Source: Collinsella sp. AK_207A
GTDB lineage: Bacteria > Actinomycetota > Coriobacteriia > Coriobacteriales > Coriobacteriaceae
Direction: 5' to 3'
DNA: 64,000 nt
Assembly (NCBI RefSeq): GCF_902501965.1
Contig: NZ_CABWID010000014.1
Span: forward strand, 186,001 to 250,000
In this document: piece by piece, positions 22,024 through 59,995 of the stretch
Layout: the number at the start of each line of letters is the position of its first letter
How positions within the stretch are numbered: position 1 is the first letter of the stretch
Notes under the pieces: model-generated
Database searches by the model: none
The model's input: the letters and a program-made list of their open reading frames with translations, nothing else
What the model was told of the DNA's origin: nothing
Program-made: the position numbers and the translations under genes

Positions 22024-22587
22024 ATGGCTCCCACGGGTAATTCGCTCATCCGCTCGGCCCTCGAGTGGGTCCTTGTCCTTGCCATCGCCTTCGTGGCTTC
22101 GTTTCTCATCCGCGAGTACGTGGCGAGCCCCTACACCGTGCCCACGGCCTCCATGGAGCCGACGATCCTCGTGGGCGACAACCTGATCGCCCAGAAGGTG
22201 ACCCTCGAGATGGGCAAGGGCGTCTCTCGGGGCGATATCGTCGTCTTCCATAATCCTGATGGCAGCTCCGACCACGATATCCTGGTGAAGCGCGTCATCG
22301 CCACCGCCGGCCAAACCGTCGATCTTCAGAACGGTACCGTCTACGTGGACGGACAGGCCTTGGACGAGCCCTACGCCTCGGGGAGCAGCTATCCGCTCGA
22401 CGTGCAGGCGCCGGGCGTTGAGGTGAGCTTTCCCTACACGGTTCCCGAGGGGTGCGTGTGGGTAATGGGCGACAACCGCGAGAACTCCGCGGACTCGCGG
22501 TACTTCGGTGCCGTGAGCGAGGACGACCTCATCGCCGTCGGGGTCTTCCGCTACTGGCCGCTCGATCGCATCGGACCGCTCGAGTAG
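22024..22587 (+). CDS. lepB: signal peptidase I
   Basis: Membrane serine protease that removes signal peptides. An N-terminal transmembrane helix (VLVLAIAFVASFLIREYV) is followed by the catalytic Ser43 in SMEPTILVGD and the general base Lys89 in ILVKRVIATAGQTV. Box E GDNRENSADSRYFGAV is present. Length of 187 residues and a single N-terminal anchor fit the Gram-positive type. It begins 3 bases after trmD and is the last gene before the large palindrome at 22604-22834. Confidence 0.95.
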   Translation: MAPTGNSLIRSALEWVLVLAIAFVASFLIREYVASPYTVPTASMEPTILVGDNLIAQKVTLEMGKGVSRGDIVVFHNPDGSSDHDILVKRVIATAGQTVDLQNGTVYVDGQALDEPYASGSSYPLDVQAPGVEVSFPYTVPEGCVWVMGDNRENSADSRYFGAVSEDDLIAVGVFRYWPLDRIGPLE

Positions 22588-22603
22588 GTCCATCCCCCCC
22601 TCG

Positions 22604-22834
22604 GTCCCCGGCCGCCCGCCGGCGCGATCTCCGCCGTTTCACCGCGGGCCTTACGAGCGAACTGAGAAGATATGGGTGTGAAGTCCAGGAACGCGCCGCG
22701 GCCCTGAACTTGTTGGGAGGACAGGGCCGTCTTCGTTTTGGCGCGTTCCTGAGGCTTCGCGCCCGTATCTTCCAGTCTCGCGAGAACGGCCCGCGGTGAA
22801 ACGGCGGAGACCGCGCCGGCGGGCGGCCGGGGAC
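22604..22834. repeat. 231-bp giant imperfect palindrome (family copy 1)
   Basis: Outer arms 22604-22650 and 22788-22834 are 47 bases each and complementary at 46 positions. Inside, CAGGAACGCGCC (22686-22697) pairs with 22740-22751 and GGCCCTG (22700-22706) with CAGGGCC (22722-22728). The family boxes are AGCGAACTG (22656-22664) in the left half and CCAGTCTCGCGAGAAC (22772-22787) in the right half. The box order places the element on the minus strand, antisense to lepB and glyQ. No coding potential, transposase or clear target-site duplication is visible. The 303-base lepB-glyQ gap holds little else. Confidence 0.85.
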
Positions 22835-22890
22835 CTCCATTTGCGCTATCATGCAGGCTCGTATGTCAACTGACGAGAAGGGACTTTCGC

Positions 22891-23814
22891 GTGGCATCTC
22901 AAGCCCTCACCTTCCAAGACATGATCCTCGCCCTCGAGCACTACTGGGCGGGCCATGGTTGCACCGTCATGCAGCCCTACGATTCCGAGGTCGGCGCCGG
23001 CACGTTCCATACCGCGACGCTCCTGCGCTCGCTCGGCAAGGATCCGTGGCGTACCTGCTATCCGCAACCCTGCCGTCGTCCGGCGGATGGCCGCTACGGT
23101 GAGAACCCGAACCGCATGCAGCACTACTACCAGTTCCAGGTGCTCATCAAGCCGAGCCCGGTGAACTCGCAAGAGCTTTACCTGGGGTCTCTCGCTGCCA
23201 TCGGCTTGGACCCCGCTAAGCACGACGTGCGCTTCGTGGAGGACGACTGGGAGAGCCCGACGCTCGGCGCCTGGGGACTCGGCTGGGAGGTCTGGCTCGA
23301 CGGCATGGAGGTCACGCAGTTCACGTACTTCCAGCAGGTGGGCGGCATCGAGTGCGATCCCGTGCCCGTTGAGATCACCTACGGCCTCGAGCGCATTGCC
23401 ATGTACGCCCAGGGCGTCACCTCCGTGTACGACCTGGTCTGGAGCTATCTCCCCGACGGCACTCCCATGACCTACGGCGACGTTTTCCTGGAGAACGAGC
23501 GCGAGTTCTCGGCCTACAACTTCGAGATAGCGAACGTCGAGATGATGCGCCAGAAGTTCGACGACTACGAGCGCGAGTGCCATGCCTGCCTCGATGCGAA
23601 CCTGCCGCTTCCGGGCTACGACTGCGTGCTCAAGTGCAGCCACGCGTTCAACCTGCTCGACTCGCGCGGTGCGCTTTCCGCCACGGAGCGCGCGGCGTAC
23701 ATCCTGCGCGTACGCACGCTCGCCAAGGCGTCGTGCGAGTGCTACCTCAAGCACGTGGCGTCAGCTCAAGATGACGAGAAGCAGGGCGCTGCCCTGGAAG
23801 GGGAGGTGGCGTAG
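22891..23814 (+). CDS. glyQ: glycyl-tRNA synthetase alpha subunit
   Basis: Catalytic chain of the bacterial (alpha2beta2) GlyRS. The GTG start at 22891 follows GAGAAGGGA. The core carries [37 protein letters not shown] and [20 protein letters not shown], all class II GlyQ signatures. At 307 residues it is of normal size. The beta gene follows with no gap. A weak -10-like TATCAT (22847-22852) lies just after the palindrome, but I see no convincing -35 and no T-box leader. Confidence 0.97.
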
Positions 23815-37928: not shown

Positions 37929-38040
37929 GCATCGGACCCGTGTACCTTGCGCTCAGTCCTCGCGAGACTGGAAAACGGCTGCGCCGTTTTCGCAGTTCGC
38001 TGCGGAGTGTCGCTTCAGGTACACGGGTCCGATGCTTTTT
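37929..38040 (+). terminator. rpoD terminator built from palindromic family copy 2
   Basis: Outer arms GCATCGGACCCGTGTACC (37929-37946) and 38018-38035 are perfectly complementary over 18 bases and followed by TTTTT (38036-38040), a terminator for rpoD. Nested inside are box A CAGTCCTCGCGAGACTGG (37954-37971), a perfect small hairpin AAAACGGC/GCCGTTTT (37972-37990) and box B CAGTTCGCT (37993-38001). The box order puts this copy on the plus strand. Confidence 0.8.
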
Positions 38041-38125
38041 CGGGTCGATGATTCTCGGCTCAGCTCATGCAAAAAGAAATAGTTCGCTGCGGAGTGTCGC
38101 TGTAGGTATGGAGGCCGGGGCTTTT
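38041..38125 (+). repeat. degenerate partial copy of the palindromic element
   Basis: The 21 bases at 37994-38014 (starting AGTTCGCTGCGG) recur exactly at 38081-38101, followed again by a TAGG/CAGG-type end and, at 38121-38125, by a run of five T. The matching left arm with box A is missing, so this looks like half of an element duplicated in tandem behind copy 2. The stretch 38126-38190 that follows holds nothing I can identify. Confidence 0.65.
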
Positions 38126-45123: not shown

Positions 45124-45329
45124 CCGGCCCCGTCCCGGTTGGGATTCAGGCGTGAAGATTTCGAGCGAACCGAGGAAACCTCCCGAGAACAGCGCTGATG
45201 CACGCAGCGGCTCAGGAAACATCTGAAGGACGTAACCATCGTCGTTTTGCGCGCATCAGCGCTTTTCTCGGAGAGGGGCTCCAGTCTCGCGAGGACCGAA
45301 CGCCCGAATCCCAACGGGGACGGGGCCGG
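45124..45329. repeat. 206-bp imperfect palindrome (family copy 3)
   Basis: Outer arms 45124-45153 and 45300-45329 match at 28 of 30 positions. The inner arms GCGCTGATGC (45192-45201) and 45253-45262 are perfect. Box A reads CCAGTCTCGCGAGGAC (45281-45296) and box B AGCGAACCG (45164-45172), so the element lies on the minus strand, the same strand as apt. It ends only 6 bases from the apt stop and fills most of the 356-base gap to the dipeptidase gene. The rest of that gap, 44980-45123, shows no clear feature. Confidence 0.82.
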
Positions 45330-59809: not shown

Positions 59810-59838
59810 ATTGTACCTGAGCTGTTGGCATCGGTCAT
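59810..59838 (-). promoter_or_regulatory. promoter of cmk, -35 inside a palindrome arm
   Basis: On the minus strand ATGACC (59838-59833) and TACAAT (59815-59810) are 17 bases apart. The -35 lies in the left outer arm of palindromic family copy 4 (59833-59921). Confidence 0.6.
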
Positions 59839-59921
59839 GCCCTGCGCCCAGTCCTCGCGAGACTGGCAAACGTCTTCGCCGTTTGCGCAGTTCGCGGCGG
59901 GGTGTCGCTGCGGACATGGCC
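59833..59921 (+). repeat. 89-bp imperfect palindrome (family copy 4)
   Basis: Box A CAGTCCTCGCGAGACTGG (59849-59866) is identical to copy 2. A small stem GCAAACG/CGTTTGC (59866-59886) follows, then box B CAGTTCGC (59888-59895) in a 21-base block that matches copy 2 at 19 positions. Outer arms GGTCATG (59833-59839) and CATGGCC (59915-59921) pair with one G-T. On the plus strand by box order, opposite to the flanking rluB and cmk genes. The rest of the 211-base gap, 59922-59995, holds nothing clear. Confidence 0.75.
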
Positions 59922-59995
59922 GGCGGCCGCGTTCCATGCCCAATCGAAGGCACGGCAGAAGGTTCGCATCGCAGGGGGATGTTCTGGTTGATTCT

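What the first reader, a model, noticed from the sequence alone, without database searches (positions are those of the whole stretch)
22604..22834. Giant 231-bp palindrome with 47-base arms before glyQ
One mismatch in 47 arm bases over a 231-base element is extreme for an intergenic repeat. Such a long inverted repeat is normally unstable, so recent insertion or active selection is likely. It may also be transcribed between lepB and glyQ as a hairpin of more than 80 base pairs.
Basis: partly seen in the sequence, partly recalled or inferred. Interest (0 to 1): 0.6.

Follow-up and report, generated by a model that had tools for sequence, protein, structure and literature searches.

The report
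Dispersed gene-end hairpin element in Collinsella
The giant palindrome is real but not unique: it is one of about forty copies, in this gut bacterium, of an unlabelled hairpin element that sits just after the ends of genes, with a shared core but different self-matching arms from copy to copy, and relatives of it occur across the same bacterial class.

Summary
The palindrome is exactly as described: 47-base arms (22604-22650/22788-22834), one mismatch. It is not a singleton. Searches found 41 places in this 2.1-Mb Collinsella genome (20 long form, 21 short form), four of them in the window. They share a conserved asymmetric internal-loop core; nearly all have long self-complementary arms, unrelated between copies. 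Of the 41, 37 lie within -27 to +47 nt of the stop codon of a gene reading into them (15.5% expected, p=6e-26). None of 29 relatives whose lepB-glyQ gap I read has the element there. The same core occurs in other Collinsella and in 8 other genera (6 families) of the class; in two of those genera, pairs of copies in unrelated surroundings share the whole element, arms included, with abrupt ends, so the complete element moves. No Rfam family matches. Outer-arm mismatches show no G-U preference (13 G.T, 12 A.C), so the arms look matched at DNA level. The palindrome nuclease SbcD is below cut-off in all 43 Collinsella genomes searched. Best reading: a REP-like mobile gene-end hairpin that probably ends or shields the upstream transcript. 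Termination is supported for the short form (T-runs), not for this copy. The trans-acting partner is unknown.

The parts
22603..22835 (+). whole palindromic element (long form); + = orientation of the conserved core
22603..22650 (+). left outer arm
22788..22835 (+). right outer arm, pairs with the left arm with one mismatch
22649..22791 (+). 143-nt long-form core (model R2 match, E 3.7e-34; this copy is one of the 13 the model was built from)
22657..22668 (+). conserved motif GCGAACTGAGAA, 5' side of the internal loop
22772..22784 (+). conserved motif CCAGTCTCGCGAG, 3' side, with one unpaired base
22686..22751 (+). inner stem: 22686-22697 pairs with 22740-22751 (CAGGAACGCGCC/GGCGCGTTCCTG)
22024..22587 (+). 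lepB (signal peptidase S26), the gene reading into the element; 15 nt between its stop codon and the element
22891..23814 (+). glyQ (glycyl-tRNA synthetase alpha subunit)
22847..22852 (+). possible -10 box of glyQ (TATCAT) in a TGCGCTAnnATG stretch shared with the two nearest relatives; inference by eye
   Evidence: one search found no promoter by its own rule
37929..38035 (-). second copy in the window, short form, followed by TTTTTC
38081..38100 (+). half of a short-form core without its partner half (remnant)
45124..45329 (+). third copy, long form
59833..59923 (-). fourth copy, short form, arms partly degraded

Best explanation
The palindrome is one copy of a dispersed, REP-like family of mobile gene-end hairpin elements of the Coriobacteriia. 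SHOWN: a conserved asymmetric internal-loop core; long self-matching arms, unrelated between copies in this genome; placement directly after stop codons; absence from this site in the 29 relatives read; the same core in other genera and families; and, in two other genera, pairs of copies in unrelated surroundings that share the whole element with abrupt ends. INFERRED: (1) the complete element, arms included, spreads to new gene ends through an unidentified factor that recognises the folded core; (2) afterwards the arms drift in sequence but stay matched to each other by DNA-level arm-to-arm copying (template switching) rather than by RNA pairing; (3) in place it serves as the 3'-end hairpin of the upstream gene, stopping RNA polymerase or protecting the mRNA end, here between lepB and glyQ; (4) such long palindromes survive because the genus lacks SbcCD.
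For: 41 places in the own genome: 21 short by R1 (E 1.4e-7 or better) and 20 long by R2 (E 1.5e-20 or better). Long cores are 142-144 nt in all 13 copies first aligned; 33 of 48 pairs show changes on both sides, 0 of 500 shuffles. Placement: 37 of 41 within -27..+47 nt of an upstream stop codon against 15.5% of intergenic bases of contig C14, p=6e-26. Short form: at least 4 T in the 8 nt after the hairpin in 7 of 19, further on in 0 of 19. Site empty of the element in 29 of 29 relatives read. Same core in 14 of 14 readable loci outside the genus; motif-plus-helix search with 0 hits for 4 scrambled motif pairs in all 7 stretches. Mobility: L268/L277 (G291) share 236 nt at 92%, L273/L278 (G088) 182 nt at 95%, spanning the hairpin, with otherwise different flanks. 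Outer-arm mismatches 13 G.T against 12 A.C. SbcD over cut-off in 0 of 43.
Against: This copy has no T-run after its hairpin (TCCATTTG), and the long form as a whole has no excess of T (0.178 against 0.191; 3 of 19 with at least 4 T). The core is antisense to the upstream gene in 27 of 38 copies, so the purine-rich loop strand is usually not the mRNA, and this copy is in the minority orientation. No partner enzyme was found: the one Y1 transposase gene of the genome has no copy beside it, and G005, with at least one variant copy (L079), has no such gene. In the own genome no two copies share arms, and core and arm similarity are not correlated (Mantel p 0.10-0.72). G.T/A.C counts are small, and 9 of 41 copies had no outer arm as measured.
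Confidence: 0.65

Rival explanations
1. Target-site reading: only the core (about 75 or 143 nt) is mobile and it inserts into the tip of existing terminator hairpins, so the arms are the host gene's own terminator stem.
For: In the own genome arms are unrelated between copies (no pair of 820 above the shuffled maximum, 26 against 31; means 13.5 and 12.7) while the short core is 0.888 identical and its inner stem 0.741. Placement at terminator positions, T-runs after short-form arms. In 8 of 24 comparisons the orthologous gene end in G057 or G005 carries a plain hairpin of 10-17 bp.
Against: In G291 and G088 copies in different surroundings share their arms; in G125 two copies share 106 nt at 81%. 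Long-form arms are much longer than ordinary stems here. Arms next to the short core keep a weak consensus (0.469 against 0.260 further out). Own arms are no more like orthologous gene ends than like random ones (14.9 against 15.2), though these species are too distant for a fair test. Inner stems of the long form vary too.
Confidence: 0.1
2. Structured RNA: the hairpin is a protein- or RNase-binding RNA in the 3' UTR of the upstream gene, selected at each site.
For: Strong covariation. Motif 1 is 0.92-0.93 identical on its two sides (motif 3: 0.96 and 0.81) although stems have diverged about as far as 4-fold sites between species. Orientation bias 27:11 in the own genome and 12:3 in other genomes; together p=0.0008.
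Against: G.T and A.C mismatches are about equal in the outer arms (13 against 12). Not found at the orthologous gene ends compared (24 comparisons) or at lepB-glyQ in 29 relatives. No Rfam match.
Confidence: 0.22
3. Assembly artefact or chance palindrome.
For: Long inverted repeats can arise at misassembled contig ends.
Against: Many separate copies inside contigs, the same core in unrelated assemblies, and a best score of 15 in 20 shuffled windows against 44.
Confidence: 0.01

Closest known systems
REP / BIME repetitive extragenic palindromes with RAYT (PMC2817692, PMC3733652; passages read)
   Same: dispersed intergenic palindromes, species-specific sets, close to gene ends; roles in termination or mRNA stability proposed; in G088 a half core stands beside a whole one, as in a mosaic
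   Different: REPs are 20-40 bp with shared arms and a GTAG (or CGTC) foot, usually over 100 copies and often near their transposase; here 90-250 nt, arms differ between copies of this genome, no foot motif, about 41 copies, no RAYT beside them
ERIC / NEMIS (Correia) long palindromic repeats (recalled, not tested)
   Same: 100-200 bp, intergenic, can be transcribed as hairpins
   Different: their sequence including the ends is shared between copies; in this genome only the central core is
Rho-independent terminators
   Same: position just after stop codons; T-run in part of the short form
   Different: conserved internal-loop core of 74-143 nt, arms up to about 50 bp, no T-run in most long-form copies including this one
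Collinsella-1 RNA (RF01700) and palindromic candidate RNAs of human microbiomes (PMC2864571, PMC8040213; passages read)
   Same: structured or palindromic elements of gut bacteria
   Different: no Rfam match to the element; the 250 palindromic candidates of PMC8040213 could not be checked one by one (supplements not readable here)

Membership tests
REP/BIME with RAYT | GTAG or CGTC tetranucleotide at the foot of the palindrome | tested here: not met
   GTAG in 5 of 41 and CGTC in 3 of 41; control tetramers 0-6 of 41; arm ends of short copies are estimates
REP/BIME with RAYT | cognate Y1 transposase gene, often flanked by the repeats | tested here: inconclusive
   one Y1_Tnp gene in the own genome, no copy in the 3.3 kb read around it; family in 37 of 43 Collinsella, not in G005 (a variant copy) or G057 (one copy in 800 kb)
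REP/BIME with RAYT | 20-40 bp palindrome whose sequence is shared by the copies | tested here: not met
   90-250 nt; arms unrelated between copies in this genome; shared only within pairs in G291 and G088
Intrinsic terminator | GC-rich stem shortly after the stop codon | tested here: met
   37 of 41
Intrinsic terminator | T-run directly after the stem | tested here: inconclusive
   short form 7 of 19 with at least 4 T, long form 3 of 19, this copy no; one search reports no terminator-like site at the element
MITE (classical) | terminal inverted repeats conserved between copies | tested here: not met
   in this genome the outer ends are the least conserved part
MITE (classical) | target-site duplication | tested here: inconclusive
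   TCCAT on both sides of this copy by eye (22589-22593, 22836-22840); none obvious at the ends of the G291 and G088 pairs; no empty site of a close strain available
Rfam families (4227) | match at gathering score | tested here: not met
   none at this element (only chance-level matches below threshold) or in 20 loci with copies (only a tRNA)
Integron attC sites | R'/R'' boxes, integrase | not tested
   considered only because of the unpaired bases; recalled, no box seen by eye

The most novel reading that the evidence does not exclude
A class-wide family of structure-recognised mobile DNA in Coriobacteriia that lives at gene ends: an unknown protein recognises the folded single-stranded core, arm sequence is free to change because replication keeps copying one arm onto the other, and loss of SbcCD lets these giant hairpins accumulate and take over as gene-end signals.
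Probability: 0.27. Interest if true: 0.75.

Novelty: new variant of a known kind. Interest (0 to 1): 0.6.

Why it matters
Covariation of stems is usually read as proof of a selected RNA. Here strong covariation comes without a wobble preference in the outer arms, in a genus with no SbcD above cut-off, so it is a natural test case for telling RNA selection from DNA-level arm copying. It also gives a compact, searchable motif for an unlabelled gene-end element in a class of gut bacteria, and makes the question of what limits long palindromes in bacterial chromosomes testable by comparing lineages with and without SbcCD.

Tried and rejected
A T-box or riboswitch before glyQ: no Rfam match. RAYT mobilisation: one Y1_Tnp gene, not flanked by copies; family absent from G005, which has a variant copy. 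Phage or plasmid carriage: no match of a short copy in plasmids or of this copy in phages; the 9 viral contigs matches folded are not hairpins of this kind. Arms derived from the ancestral terminator: the look-alike at L097 (C-terminus GGGMY, groEL-like) is not significant (3 of 14 unrelated gene ends score as high; orthologous mean 14.9 against 15.2). Replication-strand preference by local GC skew: 21 of 41 positive, none. Hypermutation of stems: unnecessary, since 4-fold sites between species are near saturation (0.537 identity, random 0.412). Copy lineages in the own genome: no correlation of core and arm similarity. Six of 11 weak R1 hits in other Collinsella were judged false by folding (L072, L074, L076, L078, L081, L083). 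A general core alignment (A4) aligned the arms badly and was not made into a model. mis-set the arm ends of the long form; one search replaces it for T-runs. Of 13 genome contigs matches only L140 shows the hairpin; it is the same stretch as L070. My first parse of the lepB-glyQ gaps printed 5 relatives only; one search reads 29.

On checking, searches showed shared arms in pairs of copies in G291 and G088; that reading is now 0.1, the RNA reading went from 0.25 to 0.22, the main one from 0.6 to 0.65 and the novel case from 0.25 to 0.27.

Not in print, as far as these searches go: searches listed no paper describing this element. Of the papers named I saw passages only; PMC6006769, PMC3116915, PMC3686654 and others only in search listings.

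Full report
OBSERVATION. The palindrome is present as described: 46 of 47 positions pair at 22604-22650/22788-22834, with A22627/C22811 the single mismatch; 22603/22835 adds one pair. The + strand folds at -216.9 kcal/mol, z -21.2 against 200 dinucleotide shuffles. The best inverted repeat in 20 block-shuffled windows scores 15, this one 44. It lies 15 nt after the lepB stop and 55 nt before the glyQ start.

IT IS A FAMILY. A search of the own genome with the element found five further places matching its middle, not its arms. The motif GCGAACTGNGRA occurs 21 times, against one for the reversed control. Folding these regions showed hairpins with the same core and different arms; L013 did not, and L011 and L024 held half a core. 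I made two covariance models: R1 from 9 short copies and R2 from 13 long copies; source copies match by construction. R1 gives 21 separate places in the own genome with E 1.4e-7 or better (opposite-strand echoes and weaker matches not counted), R2 gives 20 with E 1.5e-20 or better. These 41 places are the set used below; one (L225) has no outer arms. A further long hairpin outside the set is at C10:404120-404238.

ANATOMY. From outside in: an outer arm; an internal loop (short form CCCGAAGCGACACTCCGCAGCGAACTG on the 5' side, CCAGTCTCGCGAGGACTGAGCGAAGGG on the 3' side); and an inner stem, 9 bp in the short form, longer and broken by further conserved motifs in the long form. In 14 short copies identity is high over model positions 11-84 and falls to background beyond about -6 and +97: core 0.888, near arm 0.469, further out 0.260. 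Long cores measure 142-144 nt in the 13 aligned copies and 142-150 nt in all 20. In the long form 33 of 48 pairs show changes on both sides; 93.6% of cells pair against 75.6% shuffled, 0 of 500 shuffles. In some copies the arms run into the upstream coding sequence: 18 nt of a gene ending QATQRA in L206, 10 nt in L226, 6 nt on both sides in L208; for L095 two estimates disagree (27 nt inside; 10 nt after the stop).

PLACEMENT. With a simple codon-usage gene caller, 37 of 41 copies lie within -27 to +47 nt of the stop codon of a gene reading into them; 15.5% of intergenic bases of contig C14, copies masked, lie there (binomial p=6e-26). Of the other four, three had no such gene called (L215, L092, L099) and one (L093) is 72 nt away. 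Arrangement: 28 tandem, 9 convergent, 3 divergent, 1 unassigned. The core is antisense to the upstream gene in 27 and sense in 11 of 38 (p=0.014); in tandem arrangements 20:8 (p=0.036). In 19 loci of other genomes: 12 antisense, 3 sense, 2 without a gene, 2 not found by the script; of the 3 sense cases L071 was scored at a neighbouring hairpin and L268 and L277 lie between convergent genes. The lepB-glyQ copy is in the minority (sense) orientation. Short copies have a T-rich stretch directly after the hairpin in mRNA sense (0.342 against 0.132; at least 4 T in 7 of 19 against 0 of 19); long copies do not (0.178 against 0.191; 3 of 19 against 0 of 19). The window copy is followed by TCCATTTG.

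RELATIVES. The genus is Collinsella: L140, titled uncultured Collinsella sp., holds the stretch of L070 from same-genus genome G008. The lepB-glyQ gap was read in 29 of 42 other Collinsella genomes (12 were not fetched, 1 has no glyQ match). None has the element. In 28 the gap is 51-186 nt with no inverted repeat scoring above 14; L043 holds a chance match to one of the short motifs tested and no inverted repeat. In G017 (L051) the gap is 652 nt and holds a different palindrome, 33 bp perfect with a 12-nt loop and no core. The two nearest relatives share with the window a TGCGCTAnnATG stretch before glyQ, which I take by eye for a -10 region, so the element seems to sit between the lepB end and the glyQ promoter.

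WIDER OCCURRENCE. R2 matched 1 of 42 other Collinsella genomes (L207, real by folding). R1 matched 7 of 42 at E 0.1 or better; of 11 such loci folded, 5, in 5 genomes, are long palindromes with the core or a close variant (L070, L071, L073, L075, L079) and 6 are not. Over 396 genomes of the class R1 matched 17, in 11 of 153 genera. I printed 15 loci outside the genus: L271 was too short to read, and the other 14, from 8 genera in 6 families, show the core between long arms; L275 was not looked at. The part shared by all is YYCGCAG...GAGGA, with AGCGA-like stretches nearby. A strict motif-plus-helix search on held stretches found 3 (own C14, 300 kb; it misses most long copies), 0 (own C10, 100 kb), 1 (G057, 800 kb), 0 and 0 (G005, 400 kb), 1 (G088, 200 kb) and 5 (G125, 200 kb), with 0 for four scrambled motif pairs throughout.

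MOBILITY. In G291, L268 and L277 share 236 nt at 92% spanning the whole hairpin, and their 3-kb surroundings have no other match in that orientation; in G088, L273 and L278 share 182 nt at 95%, and a second stretch of about 140 nt at 81% upstream that contains half a core; L273 and L279 of the same genome share only the inner 64 nt. So in these genera the complete element, arms and some flank included, has been copied to unrelated gene ends. In the own genome no two copies share arms (820 pairs): either the copies are older and the arms have drifted, which I favour, or arms are renewed at each site.

HOW THE ARMS STAY MATCHED. If RNA pairing were selected, G-U should outnumber A-C mismatches. 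Isolated mismatches in the outer arms, read in mRNA sense, are 13 G.T and 12 A.C; over whole elements 61 and 49, including positions shared by copies. The numbers are small; 9 of 41 copies had no outer arm beyond the model as measured, and the 3 without an upstream gene were left out. SbcD (TIGR00619) is over its cut-off in 0 of 43 Collinsella genomes; 41 have no match at E 0.001 and 2 a weak one. The same search rings in 13 of 14 control genomes, over the cut-off in 8. That SbcCD breaks a palindrome in the E. coli chromosome is the title of a paper in the reference list of PMC7999016; more than that is recalled. I infer that hairpins survive here and that replication can copy one arm onto the other. 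SbcC was not searched.

AGE AND SELECTION. Between this genome and G057, 4-fold sites are 0.537 identical (random expectation 0.412). Stem 2 of the long form is 0.43-0.50 identical between copies (random 0.262), while the two sides of motif 1 are 0.92-0.93 and those of motif 3 0.96 and 0.81. So copies need not be recent, and core loops look constrained in each copy, or exchanged between copies; I cannot separate these. No tree-like signal links cores and arms.

CONCLUSION. Dispersed family at gene ends: very likely. Mobility of the complete element: likely, from the shared copies in two other genera and the empty site in 29 relatives. Function as a gene-end hairpin: plausible, better for the short form than for this copy. 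Partner and mechanism of spread: unknown. It resembles REPs in distribution but fails the REP tests made here (foot motif, shared arms), so I do not file it as a REP. No description was found in the searches made; it could still be among the unlabelled palindromic candidates of PMC8040213, whose supplements I could not read.

Noticed in passing
window 38081-38100: an orphan half of a short-form core directly downstream of a complete copy, suggesting that copies break down
   Followed up: partly
G000:C18, downstream of the short copy L080 (within about 300 nt after the gene's stop codon): another orphan half, of the long form, beside a complete short copy
   Followed up: no
L051 (G017), between lepB and glyQ: a different palindrome, 33 bp perfect with a 12-nt loop and no core, in an enlarged 652-nt gap at the same gene junction
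   Followed up: no
G057:C2: another set of inverted repeats with arms of about 22-29 nt and 88-138 nt between them (arms such as acaggttt, tctgagtc), several in 800 kb, unexplained
   Followed up: no
G057:C2:179483-179548 and 378546-378613: two perfect 28-29 bp hairpins 18-19 nt after stop codons with nearly the same tip (GCGT, T or C variants, GCGAAGCC): perhaps a miniature analogue
   Followed up: no
G000:C10:401509-401825: cluster of inverted repeats of GCTTAGCAACCGCCC type, looks like an operator array
   Followed up: no
G000:C14:179675-179818: 29-nt inverted repeats of another kind (GGCCGATACTTTATCGGTTTTC)
   Followed up: no
L038:1084-1968 (-): single-copy Y1 transposase (RAYT-like) gene with no palindromic copy beside it
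   Followed up: partly
43 Collinsella genomes searched: no SbcD above cut-off: apparent genus-wide absence of the palindrome nuclease
   Followed up: partly
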